Shown in pieces: positions 68-11,653 of a stretch of DNA of 26,645 bases (its first letter is position 1; each line of letters starts with the position of its first letter). The notes beneath the pieces are model-generated. The model worked only from the letters and a program-made list of their open reading frames with translations. It was not told the DNA's origin and did no database searches. The translations under genes and the position numbers were made by a program. Source of the DNA: a virus; IMG/VR virus record IMGVR_UViG_3300004154_000242, positions 1 to 26,645 of that record; one strand, 5' to 3'.

Positions 68-820
68 TCAGGCAGCGAGCGCAGAAAGCAAGTGCGCCGG
101 GGTGGTGTAGACGATAACCGAGGCGGCATCGGCCAGAGCTGTTGCGGCCTTGCGGTTTTCCTCTTCGTCGCTGGCTTCTAGGATGACCCGCCGTCGCGTG
201 CCAAAGTGCGCATTTTTGATGTCTAAGAGCTTGCCCACGGCTCGATAGACCAGGCTCCAGTCCACCTTGCCGTCTTTGGCGGGCACGGTCTGGATCAGCG
301 TCAGCGCTTCTCCATCCGCCTCAATGGCGAACGGCAAGGTCAGCTGGTGCCCGCTGGCACCGGTGATGCGGTAGTCGATCTTGAGCTGCGGGTAGGCGCT
401 CTTCAGCGTCGATTCAATCATGCGGTCAAAGCGCGACGCCGGCGTCGGGCGCATCGCGCTGCAGGCGTAGCCTACATGCTCGGCGGCCTCAATGAAGCGC
501 GCAAGGTAGAATCCCACCTGTTCCTCGGCGCAGATCTTGAAAATTTCGCCATCGTCGGACAACTCAAGGCCGCGCTCCGCGACCAGAGCGGCCAGCCGTC
601 TTCCCTTCTCGGCGGTCGGTTTTACGCCGTGAGTCATGGCGGCGAACAGGGTGTCGGCATTATCGCTGATGCGCACGCGTCCAGCCCCGAGCTCTTGCAC
701 GTAGGCGCCGATGAGCAGGCCGTCAAAGGCCAGCGCTAGAGGGGATTGCAGATAAACCACGCCGTCCGCCACCGGTTTACATTTGAAGCCCAGTTGGCTC
801 CCAATTAGTGTGCAGTTCAT
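68..820 (-). CDS. DUF1828-like protein of unknown function
   Basis: This 250-residue soluble protein has an N-terminal half that looks like the DUF1828 family. It has a strand-rich stretch ending in FDGLLIGAYVQELGAG (about residues 32-47), then an ISDNADT segment (51-57) like the usual 'L(T/S)DDGxT' of that family, and a later ELSDDGEIF (86-94). The C-terminal half (about 130-250) is alpha/beta and resembles the domain that often follows DUF1828, but I cannot name it firmly. No signal peptide, membrane segment or catalytic motif is visible. The start overlaps the stop of the upstream gene in an ATGA arrangement, so the two are translationally coupled and probably act together. It is the last gene before a terminator. 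The function of DUF1828 proteins is not established to my knowledge. Their presence in phage cargo arms fits a defence, anti-defence or toxin-antitoxin role, which is inference only. Confidence 0.75.
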   Translation of the reverse strand: MNCTLIGSQLGFKCKPVADGVVYLQSPLALAFDGLLIGAYVQELGAGRVRISDNADTLFAAMTHGVKPTAEKGRRLAALVAERGLELSDDGEIFKICAEEQVGFYLARFIEAAEHVGYACSAMRPTPASRFDRMIESTLKSAYPQLKIDYRITGASGHQLTLPFAIEADGEALTLIQTVPAKDGKVDWSLVYRAVGKLLDIKNAHFGTRRRVILEASDEEENRKAATALADAASVIVYTTPAHLLSALAA

Positions 821-1326
821 AGGCTGAATCCCATTTGGCCTTGCTCAGGCAATTCGAACGGCGGCGCCCCGGAGATGTTTGCTTTCGCCAAGAATAGCCG
901 CCATAGCGCCTGATCGGTAGAGCTGGCTAGGGGTTCGGCGTAGCCCTCACTGCCATCAGGTACTGGTATGTGCAGGTGGGGATGGTCGATCTGCTGCTGG
1001 AAGAACGGGAGTCCGGCGCCCACTGAGTTGACGTGCGCCGACGGGCCGTTGTCATCGATGGCGATGATCCTGGTGCTGTTGGCAATCAGCACCATGGACA
1101 GTGTGTCTCTGGCGCCGGGAATGCGGGAGCGCTTGAAGTAGAGGTCGACGAACCAGCCCTCAGCTGTCTTCCCATTGACCTCCAAGGCAGCGCGGAAGCT
1201 GTAGGGCGCAGGGAACCTACGGGCTGAGGTTGATCGCCAGACGATCCGGGCGCCGCCGGCCCATACCTTCGGCTGGCTGGCGGCATGGATGGCTTCATCG
1301 TAGGGGATAATGTTCGGACTGGCCAT
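817..1326 (-). CDS. Hypothetical protein coupled to the DUF1828-like gene
   Basis: This protein of 169 residues is not recognised. It has no signal peptide and no obvious membrane helix. It begins MASPNIIPYDEAIHAASQPK and looks like a mixed alpha/beta soluble protein. A strand-rich core around residues 25-85 includes WFVDLYFKRS and LSMVLIANSTRIIAID. A His/Pro-rich segment, DHPHLHIPVPDG, lies near 114-125 and could be a metal or active-site loop, but there is no family evidence for this. Its stop overlaps the downstream DUF1828-like start by 4 nt, a strong sign of a two-gene module. The start chosen is the ATG at 1326; the AAGGAAG upstream is rather distant for a good ribosome site. A 109-bp gap separates it from the nuclease gene upstream, so it could have its own promoter. 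Confidence 0.7.
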   Translation of the reverse strand: MASPNIIPYDEAIHAASQPKVWAGGARIVWRSTSARRFPAPYSFRAALEVNGKTAEGWFVDLYFKRSRIPGARDTLSMVLIANSTRIIAIDDNGPSAHVNSVGAGLPFFQQQIDHPHLHIPVPDGSEGYAEPLASSTDQALWRLFLAKANISGAPPFELPEQGQMGFSL

Positions 1327-1435: not shown

Positions 1436-2335
1436 CTACCGGCACAGGCTTTCACACGGCACCCCATCGTTGTCCGGATCAAGCCGGCCATTCCCGCACT
1501 CGTTCAGGTGGTGTCGAGCCTCTTCGCAGCTCGACATCTGCCCGCACGTCTTCTTCGTCGAGCAGCTGTAGGTCGAGCTGTTGGTCGCCTGAGCCGCTGC
1601 TTTGATCGGGGCAACCTTCTGGCTTACCGCGCCCAGGCAGCTGGTCATATTCACCGGCCCCACGTAGGGATTGCCCCAGCCCATCGCACAGGCAGTTTTC
1701 TGGTTGCGCCACTGCTCCCATTCGCTGACTGGGTACATCTTGTTCCAGGCCTCGTAGGTGCGGCGGTCTTGGCTCGAGAGACGCAGCTTGTACCGATCAG
1801 CCATGTAGAGCGTGACGCGAGCTGCGGGGCCGCGGACGTTCTCTGGCGGCATGGCAGTCTTCTGCTTGAAGTCGATCACAATCTGGCACTGGCCATACTG
1901 GCTGGGCTTTTCCGTGAGCATGCCGTAGGCGAAGTTCGAGCGATCGCCATTCACCTCGCCAACGCTGGGTACCAGGTTGTGCAGGTCAGCCTCGGCGGCG
2001 GCAAACACCGGATCGTTGGCCGTGCAGTTATCGCGCCCGCCTTTCTGCCAGCATTGGCGTTGGTTGCCGATCACCCACGCTGGGACGATGTGCTCCCATT
2101 CGACGCGCCCGGCGCGGTTCGCATCTTTCCGGACCGAGTAGCCGCAGCTCTTCAGGTCGATGCGGTTCCCTTCGTATTTGCAGCCACAGTAGAAGTCGAC
2201 TGGGCGCTCGGCGTAGATCTTCCAGGCGATCTCCTTGGCCTCGCGGAAGGTGCGGGGTGCTTCTGTAGGCTGGAGGGCCAAGGCGAGCGGTGAAACGAGG
2301 ACGAGCAGCAGGGCTGCGAACAGCTTGGAGCGCAT
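1436..2335 (-). CDS. Secreted EndA-family (endonuclease I) nuclease with excalibur domain
   Basis: The 299-residue protein begins with a typical signal peptide (MRSKLFAALLLVLVSPLALA), so it should act in the periplasm or outside the cell. The body matches endonuclease I (Pfam Endonuclease_1, as in E. coli EndA and Vibrio Vvn). It has the EHIVPAW active-site block with its histidine, then DLHNLVPSVGEVNGDRSN, with many cysteines as in periplasmic members. After a Ser/Ala-rich linker the last 45 residues form a cysteine-bearing excalibur domain ending in LDPDNDGVPCESLC, a predicted calcium-binding DxDxDG motif. A longer frame exists upstream, but the ATG at 2335 has AAGGAT at the right distance and places the signal peptide at the N terminus. 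As prophage cargo it could degrade incoming DNA at the envelope or serve the host in nutrient scavenging or biofilm turnover. The family is confident; the role is inference. Confidence 0.9.
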   Translation of the reverse strand: MRSKLFAALLLVLVSPLALALQPTEAPRTFREAKEIAWKIYAERPVDFYCGCKYEGNRIDLKSCGYSVRKDANRAGRVEWEHIVPAWVIGNQRQCWQKGGRDNCTANDPVFAAAEADLHNLVPSVGEVNGDRSNFAYGMLTEKPSQYGQCQIVIDFKQKTAMPPENVRGPAARVTLYMADRYKLRLSSQDRRTYEAWNKMYPVSEWEQWRNQKTACAMGWGNPYVGPVNMTSCLGAVSQKVAPIKAAAQATNSSTYSCSTKKTCGQMSSCEEARHHLNECGNGRLDPDNDGVPCESLCR

Positions 2336-2405: not shown

Positions 2406-3287
2406 TCAGGCGCAGCGGTTGCGCCACCATTCGATGGTTCGCTCGGCAAGTTCCGGTGTTGAACTCGCCTCGATCACCTCAAGGCCCGAAATTCGAATCC
2501 GATCAAGCTGGCGCTGGGTGGCACAGGAGAGCTTGTTGAATTCCCGGTTGGTCAGCCCGCTCTCCTTGTTGGGAACGAGCACGGAGATGGATGCCGCGCG
2601 GTCGCTGTTGCTGCGGATCAGGTTGAGGTCGGCCGAGGCCTGCAGCAGATTGTTCTCTACTACCAGCGGGCTCTTGTACCAACCCGATACGACGGTGCCG
2701 GCGGCGCTGGCGCTGAGCAGCGGCACGTCCATTTCGATCCTGTGTCCGCTCTTCAGCTTCAGTTCGAAGCGTGAGTCTTGGATGATGCGCGAGGCCTGCA
2801 TGTGCATGCGCTCTTTCATCAGGCCAAACACGTTGCCGCGCAGTTTGGGCGTGGACTGGTAGCGGAAGCTGTATTCGCGCACGCCTGGCCGTGGCCTAGC
2901 CAGCGTTACGACATCGGTGAAGAACTCATCGACAACGGCCTCCGGGCTTATGCCTGCGGCGAACAGCGGGGCTCCCAGGCGGATGGTTTCGCTCAGCTCG
3001 TCGGGCAGGTCATGACCCGCATTGACTATCGAGTCCTCGATGTCGTGCATGAGGTGCGATAGGTCGTTGAAGTCGATGCGGTTATCGTACAGGCACTTGA
3101 TGCGGTCGAAGGCGTCGAGCATGCGCACCTCCACCTTGCCGGATCCGTAGGTGAACAGCACGCCGACGTTCAGGAACTCACCGGCATCCTCATCAAGGCA
3201 GGCGCTTATCGGGCGCCACTGGCCCTTGACGAGGGGTTCGGAGGGGCGCTCGCTTAATCGAGCGCGCAAACGCGCTAGGTTGCTCAT
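2406..3287 (-). CDS. DUF3037-like partner of the HipA-like kinase
   Basis: This soluble protein has 293 residues. The N-terminal segment (about 22-65) reads GQWRPISACLDEDAGEFLNV followed by GVLF. This resembles the DUF3037 signature, in which a strand is followed by 'R-x-E-F-x-N-(I/V)-G-V'. The rest (about 100-293) is alpha/beta and not recognised; the whole is longer than I expect for a minimal DUF3037 protein, so there is probably an extra C-terminal domain. No signal peptide or membrane segment is seen. It overlaps the kinase stop by 4 nt (ATGA), implying coupled synthesis. DUF3037 genes are commonly found next to HipA-like kinase genes, which supports both calls. It may be the kinase's substrate, regulator or antitoxin; the sequence does not say which. 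Confidence 0.75.
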   Translation of the reverse strand: MSNLARLRARLSERPSEPLVKGQWRPISACLDEDAGEFLNVGVLFTYGSGKVEVRMLDAFDRIKCLYDNRIDFNDLSHLMHDIEDSIVNAGHDLPDELSETIRLGAPLFAAGISPEAVVDEFFTDVVTLARPRPGVREYSFRYQSTPKLRGNVFGLMKERMHMQASRIIQDSRFELKLKSGHRIEMDVPLLSASAAGTVVSGWYKSPLVVENNLLQASADLNLIRSNSDRAASISVLVPNKESGLTNREFNKLSCATQRQLDRIRISGLEVIEASSTPELAERTIEWWRNRCA

Positions 3288-4165
3288 AGGACGAGGCCGG
3301 CTGTCTTGGCATATTGTTCTGAGTCGAGTCGATCATCCAGCAATCGAATGATCGCTTCAATGTTTACCGCTTCGTCGAAGAACTCGGCGAGCACCTGCCT
3401 TGCGGCGTCGGCGCCATGCTGCCTGAAGCTGACGACAAAGCCATTGTAGGCCAAAACCATGGCGCTCTTGTTGGGCAGCATCTCGCTCCAGCGCGAGCCG
3501 TGCGTATCTAGCGTGTGGAGCAGACGATTCTGCCACGGCCATGGCGTGGAGCCTGTACCGCCCGGCTGCCAGTTCGGGTAGTGAAGAATGCGCCCATGAT
3601 CGATCAGCACTAGGTCTGTGCCGCTCGCGTCCAGCAGGTTGCCGACGTGGCGGTCGGAGTTGAGCAGCCATTCGTCGAGGGCAATCGTCTTTGGCGTATC
3701 CGGGGAGCTGGCCAGTTTTTTGAGCAGCCGCTTTTCTCTACGCTCACGAAGAAGTGGGAGCTGAACACCTTCCAGGTGACGCTGCTTCAGGCTTGGGAAT
3801 TCCATGTCCTTGCTGAACCAGCAGAAGTAGTTTTCCTGAGCCTTGCCTTTGTCTTCCTTGATCAGTGCAGTCAGCATGTCCTTCGGGAGCTGCTCGGTAT
3901 CAAGGAGGATGACGCCGGCCACGTCGGGCACGTTCAGCCCCGCGGATTTCGCTAGGACGTAGCCCAGCGCCTCGCTGATGATCTCGCGGTTACTGACATT
4001 CAGGCCGGTCACCGGGCAGCGGATGATGTCCGGGAGCGGCTTGATGTAGCAGCGGAGCTTCTCGTCGTTGATCTTGATCTTGCCCCTGAAGATCGGGCTG
4101 ATCCCGCGACTCTTCGGCGGGCGTAGCGGGCCGGAGAAGGCGGCCCCATCCAGGAATTCAATCAT
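3284..4165 (-). CDS. HipA-like Ser/Thr kinase (compact HipA_2 type)
   Basis: The 293-residue protein carries the core of the HipA/PI3K-like kinase fold. A candidate ATP-binding lysine lies in YIKPL (K42). The catalytic loop is NSDRHVGN (169-176, with D171 and N176), and the metal-binding motif is IDHG (D189). It lacks the extra N-terminal domain of E. coli HipA (about 440 residues) and fits the shorter HipA-like family. HipA kinases phosphorylate translation factors such as GltX and can arrest growth; this substrate is unknown. The ATG overlaps the end of the phage repressor gene by 8 nt, the same order as hipB-hipA, and the stop overlaps the DUF3037-like gene. Expression should therefore follow the repressor promoter in the lysogen. 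All key catalytic residues appear intact, so it is probably an active kinase rather than a relic. Confidence 0.85.
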   Translation of the reverse strand: MIEFLDGAAFSGPLRPPKSRGISPIFRGKIKINDEKLRCYIKPLPDIIRCPVTGLNVSNREIISEALGYVLAKSAGLNVPDVAGVILLDTEQLPKDMLTALIKEDKGKAQENYFCWFSKDMEFPSLKQRHLEGVQLPLLRERREKRLLKKLASSPDTPKTIALDEWLLNSDRHVGNLLDASGTDLVLIDHGRILHYPNWQPGGTGSTPWPWQNRLLHTLDTHGSRWSEMLPNKSAMVLAYNGFVVSFRQHGADAARQVLAEFFDEAVNIEAIIRLLDDRLDSEQYAKTAGLVL

Positions 4166-4703
4166 TGCGCTTCAGCTTTTCCCTAAGTCTCTGATGGGGC
4201 CTGGCTGGGGTGGTGGCTGCATCCGGCTTCCGGCTCTCGAAGCGGGCAGCTATCTGGTCGAGCAGATTGAGATCGTCTTCGGTCAGCCGGCCTTCATTCG
4301 CGGCCATGGCTATCCGCCAGAGGATTTCGCGCGAGCGCGGCGTGGCGTCTATGGCGAGCATATCGGCACAGTGCGCAACTTCTTGGGCGCCTTGATCCGC
4401 CTCTGCCTGCCCAGCGCGGGCGGGCTCCGGCTCAGCAGCCGGCGCCGCCTGGGCGATGCGGGCGATCTCGGCGGCCAGGGCGGGTTGGGGAATTTTGACG
4501 TGATCGCCATAGGCGAGCTGGGAAACTGACATGCCAAGCGCTGTGGCAATTTTCTCAAGGTCTGCCAGCGTTGGCTCTCGGGTGTCTTTCTCGTAGTTCC
4601 CAATTCTAGATTGCGATTTCCACCCGCATGCAGTGGCCAGCTCCGCCTGTGATAGGCCAGCAGCTTTGCGGTAATGAGCAATACGTGCGCCGAGGGTTTT
4701 CAT
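4158..4703 (-). CDS. XRE-family phage immunity repressor (CI-like, no S24 peptidase)
   Basis: Residues 1-65 form a clear lambda-repressor-type helix-turn-helix: LGARIAHYRKAAGLSQAELA, then an SRIGNYEKDTREPTLADLEK recognition region. The remaining part to residue 181 is Ala/Glu-rich and helical, without the Ser-Lys LexA/S24 cleavage domain seen in lambda CI. Induction may therefore not use RecA-stimulated self-cleavage; the antirepressor in the early operon is a candidate alternative. The gene is divergent from a Cro-like gene across a region with three related operator-like sites, the expected place for the immunity repressor. The ATG at 4703 has no Shine-Dalgarno sequence but coincides with the predicted transcript start. 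The 3' end overlaps the HipA-like kinase, so the repressor may also act as the HipB-like partner. Confidence 0.9.
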   Translation of the reverse strand: MKTLGARIAHYRKAAGLSQAELATACGWKSQSRIGNYEKDTREPTLADLEKIATALGMSVSQLAYGDHVKIPQPALAAEIARIAQAAPAAEPEPARAGQAEADQGAQEVAHCADMLAIDATPRSREILWRIAMAANEGRLTEDDLNLLDQIAARFESRKPDAATTPARPHQRLREKLKRND

Positions 4704-4738: not shown

Positions 4739-4774
4739 TCTCACTTATCGTGTTTGCAATAATCACATTTCGTG
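4718..4774. promoter_or_regulatory. Three operator-like sites of the lysis-lysogeny switch
   Basis: Three 11-bp sites share the pattern CAC-N5-GTG or a close variant: CACGCTCCGTT at 4718-4728, CACTTATCGTG at 4742-4752 and CACATTTCGTG at 4764-4774. They are spaced 24 and 22 bp apart, roughly two helical turns. Flanks also agree: AAT precedes the first and third, and TTT follows the second and third. The rightmost lies within the rightward promoter and the leftmost within the leftward one, as expected of repressor/Cro operators. Confidence 0.6.
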
Positions 4775-4783
4775 TTTTATGCT
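4754..4783 (+). promoter_or_regulatory. Putative rightward early promoter (PR-like)
   Basis: TTGCAA (4754-4759) and TATGCT (4778-4783) are separated by 18 bp and would start transcription near 4790. The third operator-like site (4764-4774) lies inside the spacer, so bound repressor would block it. The start near 4790 argues against using the ATG at 4790 and favours the GTG at 4811. Confidence 0.5.
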
Positions 4784-4810
4784 TCTGCCATGAGCAGCTG
4801 GAGCGCACGA

Positions 4811-5035
4811 GTGAACCGTGTACGAGAAATCAGAGAAAAGGCCGGTATTAGCCAGGCCGACCTTCGGCGCCGTCTTGATTGGAGCCAAGGGCGCCTCGCC
4901 AATTACGAGCTCGGAATTCGAAAGGTTGGCCTGGATGAGGCGCGAAGCATTGTCTGTGCGCTGAATGATCTTGGCGCGAAATGCACTCTCGATGAGGCAT
5001 TTCCACCCGCAACTCCAAAGCGCAAAACCCCGTAA
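4811..5035 (+). CDS. Cro-like XRE regulator
   Basis: This small helix-turn-helix protein is 74 residues long from the chosen start. It begins (V)NRVREIREKAGISQADLRRR and has a second helix pair, DWSQGRLANYELGIRKVGLD. It should bind the same operators as the divergent repressor and turn down both promoters. I chose GTG 4811 because GGAG lies 7 nt upstream and the protein then begins as XRE proteins usually do. The in-frame ATG 4790 and GTG 4772 lack a ribosome site and fall at or before the predicted transcript start. It is the first gene of the rightward early operon, and the last residues (PPATPKRKTP) form a short basic tail. Confidence 0.8.
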   Translation: MNRVREIREKAGISQADLRRRLDWSQGRLANYELGIRKVGLDEARSIVCALNDLGAKCTLDEAFPPATPKRKTP

Positions 5036-5046
5036 CACCAACTCCC

Positions 5047-5256
5047 TCATTCCATGAATGCCGTCAGCGACGTCACCGCCCGATCGAGCGCTACGGCGCC
5101 GGCCGGCGGGAGCTGGTCGCGCATCAGCTCGGTGAGGCGCTCGAAGGCCGGCCAGGCCTGCCGCTGGATGTCTTGGGGAAGGCTGGAGAGCAGGGCGGCA
5201 AGACAGCAACGGAGGGCGACGACTTCGCCCTGGAGTGTTTGAAGGTCGGTCGGCAT
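5047..5256 (-). CDS. Small leftward protein between cro and cII
   Basis: The reading frame gives 69 residues (MPTDLQTLQGEVVALRCCLA onward), two or three predicted helices, no membrane segment and no recognised family. GGGAG lies 6 nt before the ATG at 5256, a good ribosome site, and the composition looks protein-like rather than like an antisense shadow. It converges on the Cro-like gene and lies head-to-head with the CII-like gene. In lambda the CII-activated PRE promoter runs leftward from this interval, so the gene could be the first product of a PRE-type transcript. That role is inferred from position only. Confidence 0.55.
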   Translation of the reverse strand: MPTDLQTLQGEVVALRCCLAALLSSLPQDIQRQAWPAFERLTELMRDQLPPAGAVALDRAVTSLTAFME

Positions 5257-5341
5257 GGGACTCCCTGTCGGTCGGTCGAGTGATGACAGGTTGCCTGGGC
5301 TGGGTCCAGGGAGCCACGCGAAACGAGAGGAGCTTTCGCAG

Positions 5342-5773
5342 ATGGAGAGATTCGAGCGTGCGATCCACGACGAGGTGATCGCCGAGGGCGGCACCGAGCT
5401 GGCCCGTCGCATGGGGGCAAACCGCACGCGCCTGCTGGACTGCGCCAACCCGAACCGGGAAGCGCACCGGATGAACATCGAGATGTTTTTCCAGGTGCTG
5501 AGGCACCTGCCGGCGGACGGGTGCCGCCGGATCCTGGCCGTGCTGGTGGAGGAGTTCGGGTACCAACTGGTGGGGAAGGAGCAGCCGCAGGGGCTGACGA
5601 TCAACGACGCGCTGCTGCGCCTGCATGCCGACCTGGGCGACGTGGCGCGCCTGGCGGTCGATGCGCAGGCCGATGGCCGGGTGTGCAGCGCCGAGAAGGC
5701 CCAGCTGCTGCGGGAGGCCGACGAGGTGGTGGATAGCCTGAACGTGTTCAGGGAGTCGGTCCGTAAGGCCTGA
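5342..5773 (+). CDS. Phage regulatory protein of the CII (CP76) family
   Basis: This 143-residue protein begins MERFERAIHDEVIAEGGTEL and continues ARRMGANRTRLLDCANPNRE, the N-terminal helix-turn-helix of the Phage_CP76 / regulatory CII family. It is followed by a helical C-terminal half. Members are thought to act as transcription regulators in the lysis-lysogeny decision, as lambda CII does, though they are not close sequence relatives of lambda CII. The frame is open upstream to 5255, but the ATG at 5342 has AGGAG about 9 nt ahead and starts exactly at the conserved N terminus. It sits directly downstream of the Cro-like gene apart from the small leftward ORF, the classical cII position. 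Confidence 0.85.
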   Translation: MERFERAIHDEVIAEGGTELARRMGANRTRLLDCANPNREAHRMNIEMFFQVLRHLPADGCRRILAVLVEEFGYQLVGKEQPQGLTINDALLRLHADLGDVARLAVDAQADGRVCSAEKAQLLREADEVVDSLNVFRESVRKA

Positions 5774-5787
5774 CCCGGAAAGCAAAA

Positions 5788-5809
5788 AGCCCGGCGTGCA
5801 GGCCGGGCT
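5788..5809 (-). terminator. Terminator-like hairpin facing left, between cII and the antirepressor
   Basis: A perfect 8-bp stem AGCCCGGC / GCCGGGCT with a 6-nt loop lies in the 76-bp gap. On the minus strand it is followed by TTTTTGCTTT, so it best terminates leftward transcription. On the plus strand only CTTCAAC follows, so it would be at most a weak stop for early genes. Confidence 0.55.
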
Positions 5810-5849
5810 CTTCAACGGCGCCAAGGCGCCACAACGAACGGGAAGAATT

Positions 5850-6596
5850 ATGACCCAAGAAGTCCAGCTGTTCAATTTCGAGAAGGCCCAGGTGCGCCTC
5901 GTGACCATCGACGGCGAGCCGTGGTTTGTGGCGAAGGATGTGGCGGCGGTGCTGGGTTACGCCAAGCCTCGCAATGCGATTGCCAGCCACTGCAAGGGGG
6001 CCCTGATTCGGGGCGTCCTTACCGCTGGTGGCATGCAGGAGATGACGCTCATCCCCGAGCGCGACCTGTACCGCCTGGTGATGAAGTCGCACCTGCCGTC
6101 CGCCGAGTGCTTCGAGGAGTGGGTGGTGGGCGTGGTGCTGCCGAGCATCCGCAAGACCGGCAGCTACTCCGTGACATGTCACGCTCCGCAGATTCCGCAA
6201 TCTCTGCCCGAGGCGCTGCGCCTGGCGGCTGATCTGGCCGAACAGAACAGCCACCTGCAGCTGGTGGTCGCCGAGCAGGCGCCGAAGGTGCGTGCCCTGG
6301 AGGTGCTGACCGAGACCGCGGGGGCGATCTGCATCACCGACGCGGCCAAGCAGGTCGGCGTGCCGCCCATGGCGCTGTTCCAGTGGCTGCAGGAGAACCG
6401 CTGGATCTACCGCCGGGCCGGCTCCAGCCGCTGGCTGGCCTATCAGCCGCGTCTGGAGCAGGGCGTGCTGGTGCACAAGCTGACGGAGCTGGGCATCGAT
6501 GACGACACCGGGCAGCAGAAGGTGGCCGAGCAGGTGCTGGTGACGCGCAAGGGGCTGGCTCGGCTGGGCGAGAAGCTGGCGGGGAGGGTTGCCTGA
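5850..6596 (+). CDS. Phage antirepressor, Bro-N plus KilAC
   Basis: The protein has 248 residues and two domains. Residues about 1-110 are a Bro-N domain, with GEPWFVAKDVAAVLGYAKPR, then LIPERDLYRLVMKSHLPSAE and an FEEWVVGVVLPSIRKTG end, all hallmarks. After a helical linker, residues about 135-245 match the KilAC antirepressor domain (ITDAAKQVGVPPMALFQWLQ, then ENRWIYRR). Proteins of this build bind DNA or bind repressors and can trigger lytic growth. The ATG at 5850 follows GGAAG with 5-nt spacing; an upstream GTG overlaps the hairpin and is less likely. The stop overlaps the next start (TGATG), so it is coupled to the replication genes. Because the repressor lacks an S24 domain, this protein is a good candidate for the inducing factor. 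Confidence 0.88.
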   Translation: MTQEVQLFNFEKAQVRLVTIDGEPWFVAKDVAAVLGYAKPRNAIASHCKGALIRGVLTAGGMQEMTLIPERDLYRLVMKSHLPSAECFEEWVVGVVLPSIRKTGSYSVTCHAPQIPQSLPEALRLAADLAEQNSHLQLVVAEQAPKVRALEVLTETAGAICITDAAKQVGVPPMALFQWLQENRWIYRRAGSSRWLAYQPRLEQGVLVHKLTELGIDDDTGQQKVAEQVLVTRKGLARLGEKLAGRVA

Positions 6597-11468: not shown

Positions 11469-11555
11469 TCTGGCGCACCCAGGCGACGGCAGAAGTCACT
11501 GCCAGCGACAAGCGAAACAACGACTGGGCTCGCCCCCTGCGCCAATCCATTCCAG

Positions 11556-11585
11556 GCCCCGCCATCGTGCGGGGCTTTTTCGTTT
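11556..11585 (+). terminator. Strong intrinsic terminator 2 before the holin
   Basis: GCCCCGC pairs with GCGGGGC over a 6-nt loop and is followed by TTTTTCGTTT. It is the second stop within 125 bp, which suggests that the late genes are read only by antiterminated polymerase or from a promoter further right. Confidence 0.78.
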
Positions 11586-11653
11586 CGGCCCCTCGCCCCT
11601 TAGCTCCCTGGCAGGACTGCGCTGCGGGCCACCTAACTCCCAAGGAAACACTC

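What the first reader, a model, noticed from the sequence alone, without database searches (positions are those of the whole stretch)
2406..4703. Phage immunity repressor fused by overlap to a HipA-like kinase and a DUF3037-like gene
Three genes overlap in series: XRE repressor, compact HipA-like kinase with intact catalytic residues, and a DUF3037-like protein. The order copies hipB-hipA, but here the HTH gene also sits divergent from cro across phage-type operators. One protein may therefore control both prophage immunity and a growth-arresting kinase. Loss of repression or of the prophage could change kinase activity, giving addiction, abortive infection of superinfecting phage, or coupling of induction to host arrest. 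HipA kinases and HipA/DUF3037 neighbours are known; their direct coupling to a phage repressor is what seems unusual. The function is inference.
Basis: partly seen in the sequence, partly recalled or inferred. Interest (0 to 1): 0.78.

Follow-up and report, generated by a model that had tools for sequence, protein, structure and literature searches.

The report
Phage repressor operon carrying a HipA-type kinase
A virus that can hide inside bacteria keeps, in the same operon as the protein that holds it dormant, a suspected toxin kinase and its likely antidote, and this three-gene set recurs next to very different dormancy repressors in many unrelated bacterial viruses, which suggests a built-in way to defend the infected cell.

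Summary
On the minus strand, an HTH repressor (4158-4703), a compact HipA_2/PI4K-fold kinase with all catalytic residues (3284-4165) and a DUF3037-like protein (2406-3287) overlap by 8 and 4 nt. They lie divergent from cro across three operator-like sites. The kinase/DUF3037 pair is a divergent relative of the known defence system HipAD (DS-6, PADLOC PDC-M66), in which the kinase is the toxin and the DUF3037 protein the apparent antitoxin. The coupling to a phage repressor is not a one-off: it recurs in Pseudomonas, Azotobacter, Moraxella, Alteromonas and Gordonia phages. In 26 of 26 IMG/VR records found through the repressor's C-terminal tail, a kinase gene follows directly. The repressor lacks the S24 autoprotease domain and has a helical-hairpin tail instead. 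Phages with a 60-73% identical DNA-binding domain carry an S24 repressor and no kinase. A sister prophage shows a natural exchange of exactly tail, kinase and DUF3037 N-domain. Against strict dependence, the same kinase clade also sits behind S24 repressors, and the tail also occurs without a kinase. Best reading: a HipAD-type defence/TA module in the rexAB position, expressed with cI in lysogens. Direct control of the kinase by the repressor is plausible but unproven.

The parts
4158..4703 (-). Immunity repressor (CI type): HTH domain res. 9-62, linker, helical-hairpin tail; no S24 autoprotease domain
   Evidence: Pfam HTH_3 9.7e-15 and no S24; NTD about 50% identical to CI of mEp213/ECP1; divergent from cro
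4161..4358 (-). Repressor C-terminal tail ([ST]P[RK][ST]-helix-GRL-helix, then RLREKLKxxD), co-inherited with the kinase
   Evidence: Alignments A3/A5; 26/26 IMG/VR records found with the tail have the kinase directly downstream
3284..4165 (-). Compact HipA_2-type kinase, 293 aa; K42, E65, D171, N176, D189 intact
   Evidence: Pfam/PADLOC on relatives; AF2 pLDDT 92 and Foldseek to CtkA/PI4KII/HipA; invariant residues
2406..3287 (-). DUF3037-like protein (HipD / PDC-M66B type), probable antitoxin; two domains with a linker at res. 132-143
   Evidence: PF11236 and PDC-M66B matches, sub-threshold singly; AF2 model
4158..4165 (-). 8-nt overlap of repressor end and kinase start
   Evidence: 4 to 101 nt in most relatives (one 4-nt gap, L028; 134 nt in L073)
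3284..3287 (-). 4-nt ATGA overlap of kinase and DUF3037 gene
   Evidence: the same 4-nt overlap in nearly all close relatives
2870..4430 (-). Natural exchange unit: repressor tail + kinase + DUF3037 N-domain differ (41-76% nt) from a sister prophage that is mostly 93-100% identical on both sides
   Evidence: window vs Azotobacter beijerinckii prophage L048
4715..4731 (.). Operator-like site 1 AATCACGCTCCGTTATT
   Evidence: dyad 6/7; array test 19/2000
4739..4755 (.). Operator-like site 2 TCTCACTTATCGTGTTT
   Evidence: by alignment to site 3 (read from the sequence; array test)
4761..4777 (.). Operator-like site 3 AATCACATTTCGTGTTT
4772..5035 (+). Cro-like HTH gene, divergent (start perhaps ATG 4790)
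   Evidence: HTH_3 4.9e-9
5255..5773 (+). CII-like regulator (Phage_CP76), early operon
   Evidence: Pfam 4e-17
5796..6596 (+). Bro-N/KilAC antirepressor (Ant), early operon; candidate inducer for a repressor that cannot self-cleave
   Evidence: Pfam 4e-25 / PHROG Ant 6e-73

Best explanation
This is the lysogenic operon of a temperate tailed phage: cI (without the S24 domain), then a HipA_2-type toxin kinase, then its DUF3037 antitoxin. The pair is a divergent HipAD (PDC-M66) toxin-antitoxin/abortive-infection module in the position that rexAB occupies in lambda. It is expressed with the repressor in the lysogen, held inactive by the DUF3037 protein, and released by infection with other phages to arrest the cell. 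Shown: gene order, overlaps, immunity position, kinase fold and residues, constraint, recurrence, co-inheritance of tail, kinase and DUF3037 N-domain. Inferred: toxicity, neutralisation, defence, trigger, and whether the repressor tail touches the kinase/DUF3037 complex.
For: Gene anatomy. Kinase fold and invariant catalytic residues. Relatives match HipA_2, PDC-M66A and PDC-M66B; profile-profile match to chromosomal HipA_2 kinases at 97%. Published relatives: deleting HipA abolishes defence and deleting DUF3037 is toxic (PMC12548924); DS-6/HipAD needs kinase activity for defence (PMC13092281). Recurrence at the immunity locus in Pseudomonas phage D14P and Moraxella Mcat22, Alteromonas P24 and Gordonia ZiggyZoo, IMG/VR and genomes. 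Purifying selection. Position analogous to cI-rexAB, with RexABpp of P. putida prophage P1 as an independent case (PMC12894663).
Against: No experiment exists on this subfamily. Kinase and DUF3037 matches for the window's own proteins are below the curated cut-offs, and the DUF3037 profile match to classical members is weak (47%, C-terminal only). No promoter was found by consensus. Expression from the repressor promoter is assumed.
Confidence: 0.62

Rival explanations
1. Tripartite control: the repressor tail binds the kinase/DUF3037 complex, so one protein sets both immunity and kinase state (HipB-like autoregulation, and kinase release when the prophage is induced or lost).
For: Tail, kinase and DUF3037 N-domain were exchanged as one block between prophages that are mostly 93-100% identical on both sides, with breakpoints at the repressor linker and at the DUF3037 interdomain linker. 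Tail and kinase distances correlate (0.35, p 0.002) whereas NTD and kinase distances do not. All 26 IMG/VR records reached through the tail have the kinase.
Against: The same kinase clade sits behind S24 repressors without the tail at least four times. Tail-like hairpins occur in 20 Pseudomonadaceae genomes without a kinase nearby. Tail and kinase are neighbours, so linkage alone gives some correlation.
Confidence: 0.3
2. Kinase-based induction switch: the kinase/DUF3037 pair replaces the SOS-cleavable S24 domain and inactivates the repressor (by phosphorylation or sequestration) on an infection or stress signal.
For: Phages with 60-73% identical repressor NTD have an S24 domain and no kinase, while the window has tail plus kinase plus DUF3037. 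The tail carries a conserved [ST]P[RK][ST] motif. A prophage kinase module that controls lysogeny and defence together is known (KKP, PMC11341870).
Against: The kinase also co-occurs with S24 repressors. The [ST]PRS motif is equally conserved in kinase-free tails, so it may be only a helix cap. The phage has its own antirepressor (Ant).
Confidence: 0.15
3. The tail is only a dimerisation hairpin and the kinase/DUF3037 pair is ordinary lysogenic cargo (moron) with no dealings with the repressor.
For: Tail without kinase in host regulators and some prophage repressors; kinase behind S24 repressors.
Against: Block exchange and correlated divergence; invariable adjacency and overlap in tail-type IMG/VR loci.
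Confidence: 0.4

Closest known systems
HipAD / DS-6 / PADLOC PDC-M66 (HipA-like kinase + DUF3037; PMC13092281, PMC12548924)
   Same: Two adjacent genes, HipA_2 kinase then DUF3037 protein; catalytic residues; relatives match PDC-M66A/B.
   Different: Sequence divergent (sub-threshold singly); here co-cistronic with the phage immunity repressor and exchanged with its tail. DS-6B also carries DUF1829, not detected here.
lambda cI-rexA-rexB and RexABpp of P. putida prophage P1 (PMC12894663)
   Same: Two-gene exclusion module downstream of, and presumably co-transcribed with, the prophage repressor.
   Different: Unrelated proteins: kinase plus DUF3037 instead of RexA sensor plus RexB membrane effector; genes overlap the repressor gene.
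hipBA and hipBST toxin-antitoxin operons (PMC10627512 for hipBST)
   Same: HTH gene directly before a HipA-fold kinase.
   Different: Compact 293-aa kinase in the PF20613 family, no classical HipA N-domain detected, extra DUF3037 gene, HTH protein is a phage immunity repressor.
Lambdoid CI repressors (mEp213, HK-type)
   Same: HTH domain, divergent cro, three operators.
   Different: S24 autoprotease domain absent, replaced by a helical tail.
KKP kinase-kinase-phosphatase module of Pseudomonas Pf prophages (PMC11341870)
   Same: Prophage kinases linked to both lysogeny control and phage defence.
   Different: Different proteins, filamentous phage; only the abstract was seen here.

Membership tests
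HipAD / PDC-M66 | HipA-like kinase gene directly followed by a DUF3037 gene | tested here: met
   3284-4165 then 2406-3287, 4-nt overlap; family matches among relatives
HipAD / PDC-M66 | Own proteins score above the curated Pfam cut-offs | tested here: not met
   HipA_2 17.0 vs 27 bits; DUF3037 17.1 vs 22.6 bits; hence 'divergent relative', not a plain member
HipAD / PDC-M66 | Intact kinase active site | tested here: met
   K42, E65, D171, N176, D189 invariant in 26
HipAD / PDC-M66 | Kinase toxic without DUF3037; anti-phage activity | not testable with these tools
   shown only for a relative (PMC12548924)
hipBA | Full-length HipA (PF07804/PF13657) with HipB as sole antitoxin | tested here: not met
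   only PF20613, PF00454 and PF03109 matched, all weakly; third gene present
hipBST | Separate HipS (HipA N-subdomain) antitoxin between hipB and hipT | tested here: not met
   order HTH-kinase-DUF3037; third gene is not HipS
Lambdoid CI repressor | HTH plus S24 peptidase domain | tested here: not met
   HTH present, S24 absent, while NTD relatives have S24
Phage immunity repressor (functional sense) | Divergent from cro across an operator array, next to CII and replication genes | tested here: met
   operator array support moderate (19/2000)
RexAB-type exclusion | RexA/RexB homologues, RexB a membrane protein | tested here: not met
   kinase and DUF3037 families instead

The most novel reading that the evidence does not exclude
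A class of phage repressors has exchanged the SOS-cleavable S24 domain for a tail that docks a HipA-type kinase/DUF3037 complex. The complex then reads infection or stress and acts on both arms at once: it arrests the cell against invaders and resets or induces the resident prophage's immunity.
Probability: 0.2. Interest if true: 0.85.

Novelty: new variant of a known kind. Interest (0 to 1): 0.56.

Why it matters
HipAD is a recently recognised defence system whose trigger and control are unknown. Finding it wired into the immunity operon of many phages, with a repressor tail that travels with the kinase, gives a natural set of variants for asking how a prophage defends its host without harming itself. 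It also raises a directly testable question: whether a kinase can stand in for the classical SOS-cleavage switch of phage repressors.

Tried and rejected
Early idea: the repressor tail is exclusive to kinase loci. Rejected after the Pseudomonadaceae genome search: 20 of 27 tail hits have no kinase next door. Idea: the repressor is the HipB-type antitoxin. Lowered because S24 repressors precede the same kinase clade. Idea: [ST]PR[ST] in the tail is a phosphosite for the kinase. Unsupported, because kinase-free tails keep it. Fold search of the DUF3037 model gave nothing significant (best E 0.006; weak hits to PRPP synthetase and ERCC1/XPF-type folds). Sequence search of the PDB with the kinase and the repressor gave no hit. 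Consensus promoter/terminator scan of the operator region: none. Whole-window search against phages found no near relative. Brenes & Laub 2025, the E. coli prophage HipAD paper, is not held, so whether E. coli HipAD also sits next to cI could not be checked. One script failed on a syntax error.

Full report
OBSERVATION. The window is a 26,645-base IMG/VR virus record. On its minus strand lie an HTH repressor (4703..4158), a compact kinase (4165..3284) and a DUF3037-like protein (3287..2406), overlapping by 8 and 4 nt. A small HTH (cro-like) gene, a CII-like gene and a Bro-N/KilAC antirepressor follow in the other direction, then replication, integrase, terminase, portal and tail genes.

THE REPRESSOR. 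Its HTH domain is a normal CI-type domain, about 50% identical to the CI NTD of mEp213 and ECP1. Pfam finds no S24 autoprotease. Where lambdoid CI has S24, this protein has a roughly 70-residue tail with the pattern [ST]P[RK][ST]-helix-GRL-helix and, in close relatives, RLREKLKxxD. The helices are read from the sequence pattern; the repressor itself was not modelled. The intergenic region holds three 17-bp operator-like sites (4715, 4739, 4761); 19 of 2000 dinucleotide shuffles score as high on an array statistic, so this is moderate support only.

THE KINASE. Alone it scores below the HipA_2 cut-off. However, 27 of 34 aligned relatives match HipA_2 and 18 match PADLOC PDC-M66A; a profile-profile comparison with chromosomal HipA_2 kinases gives 97%. 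The AlphaFold model (pLDDT 92) matches H. pylori CtkA, PI4KIIalpha and HipA. K42, E65, D171, N176 and D189 are invariant in 26 relatives, and dN/dS between close pairs is 0.06-0.19. It is very likely an active kinase under selection.

THE THIRD GENE. DUF3037 and PDC-M66B match below threshold for this protein, and PDC-M66B matches 17 of 28 relatives. The model (pLDDT 86) has two domains and a disordered linker at residues 132-143. The profile match to classical DUF3037 proteins is weak (47%), so 'DUF3037-like' is the right wording.

RECURRENCE. Searching IMG/VR with the tail alone returned 24 records, and a second broader search returned two more. In all 26 a HipA-type kinase gene follows directly, usually overlapping. 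The arrangement is also in Pseudomonas phage D14P, Moraxella phage Mcat22, with Mcat18 encoding the same kinase, Alteromonas phage P24 (same type of tail) and Gordonia phage ZiggyZoo, where the annotation reads 'immunity repressor' followed by 'serine/threonine kinase'; EMsquaredA and Marteena encode the same kinase. Chromosomal HipA_2/DUF3037 pairs in Pseudomonadaceae (L107-L111, L113) have no HTH gene before the kinase. The coupling is therefore a recurrent phage arrangement.

MODULARITY. (a) Phages whose repressor NTD is 60-73% identical to the window's carry S24 repressors and no kinase. (b) Compared with an Azotobacter beijerinckii prophage (L048), the window is mostly 93-100% identical over cro, operators and repressor NTD, and again over the DUF3037 C-domain and beyond. 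In between (about 4430 to 2870) identity falls to 41-76%. The exchanged block is tail, kinase and DUF3037 N-domain, with its ends in the repressor linker and in the DUF3037 interdomain linker. (c) Over 24 loci, tail and kinase divergence correlate (Spearman 0.35, permutation 0.002), whereas NTD and kinase do not (0.07, 0.18). L004 and L031, for instance, have 89% identical kinases and 84% identical tails but only 39% identical NTDs.

LIMITS OF THE COUPLING. Within the same kinase clade the upstream repressor is of S24 type in L046, L047/L052, L053 and L102, and the tree requires several changes between the two types. Conversely, 20 of 27 Pseudomonadaceae genomes with a tail-like hairpin have no kinase beside it. 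Most of these are a conserved host XRE regulator, and a few are prophage repressors. So the tail cannot be strictly required by the kinase, and the tail by itself does not imply a kinase.

MECHANISM. In a relative, deletion of the HipA kinase abolished defence and deletion of DUF3037 was toxic (PMC12548924). In DS-6/HipAD, kinase activity is needed for defence and a kinase-DUF3037 complex is predicted (PMC13092281). The most economical reading is that this phage carries a divergent HipAD in the rexAB position, made in the lysogen together with CI, with DUF3037 as the antitoxin. The co-inheritance of the repressor tail with the kinase suggests, but does not show, that CI is a third partner. The boldest reading is that a kinase module stands in for the SOS-cleavage switch; it remains open at about 20%.

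NOVELTY. HipAD, its presence in E. coli prophages (Brenes & Laub 2025, cited in PMC13092281 but not readable here) and cI-linked exclusion modules are known. I found no paper on a repressor-kinase-DUF3037 immunity operon or on the tail; only open-licence papers were searchable. I file it as a new variant of a known kind.

Noticed in passing
window 68-1326 (-): Two overlapping genes: a DUF1828 protein (Pfam 9e-6; PADLOC PDC-M24B 2e-5) and a 169-aa protein without family; possibly a second candidate defence or TA pair downstream in the same operon.
   Followed up: no
window 1436-2335 (-): Endonuclease I homologue with an apparent signal peptide and an Excalibur calcium-binding domain encoded by a phage, just downstream of the DUF3037 gene.
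   Followed up: no
L075-L082, L084-L088, L092: A conserved chromosomal XRE regulator of Pseudomonadaceae (about 124 aa) resembles the window's repressor in both HTH and tail, without any kinase: a host regulator and a phage repressor that appear to share an origin.
   Followed up: partly
L089-L091, L093, L094: Prophage-type repressors with the same kind of tail (divergent cro and CII seen in several) but no kinase nearby; the natural kinase-free control set.
   Followed up: partly
L105: Kinase gene split into two ORFs (137 and 167 aa) next to an intact DUF3037-like gene: a possible decayed toxin with the antitoxin kept.
   Followed up: no
L022, L025, L026, L028: Very divergent kinases whose third gene shows no DUF3037 match but keeps a start such as 'W(M)PV-IEPI--SGERI-VAVA' that resembles it; probably an undescribed branch of the same antitoxin family.
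   Followed up: partly
window 11549-11586: 38 bp, 97% identical to a terminator annotated in coliphage HK639, the only near match of the whole window to known phages.
   Followed up: no
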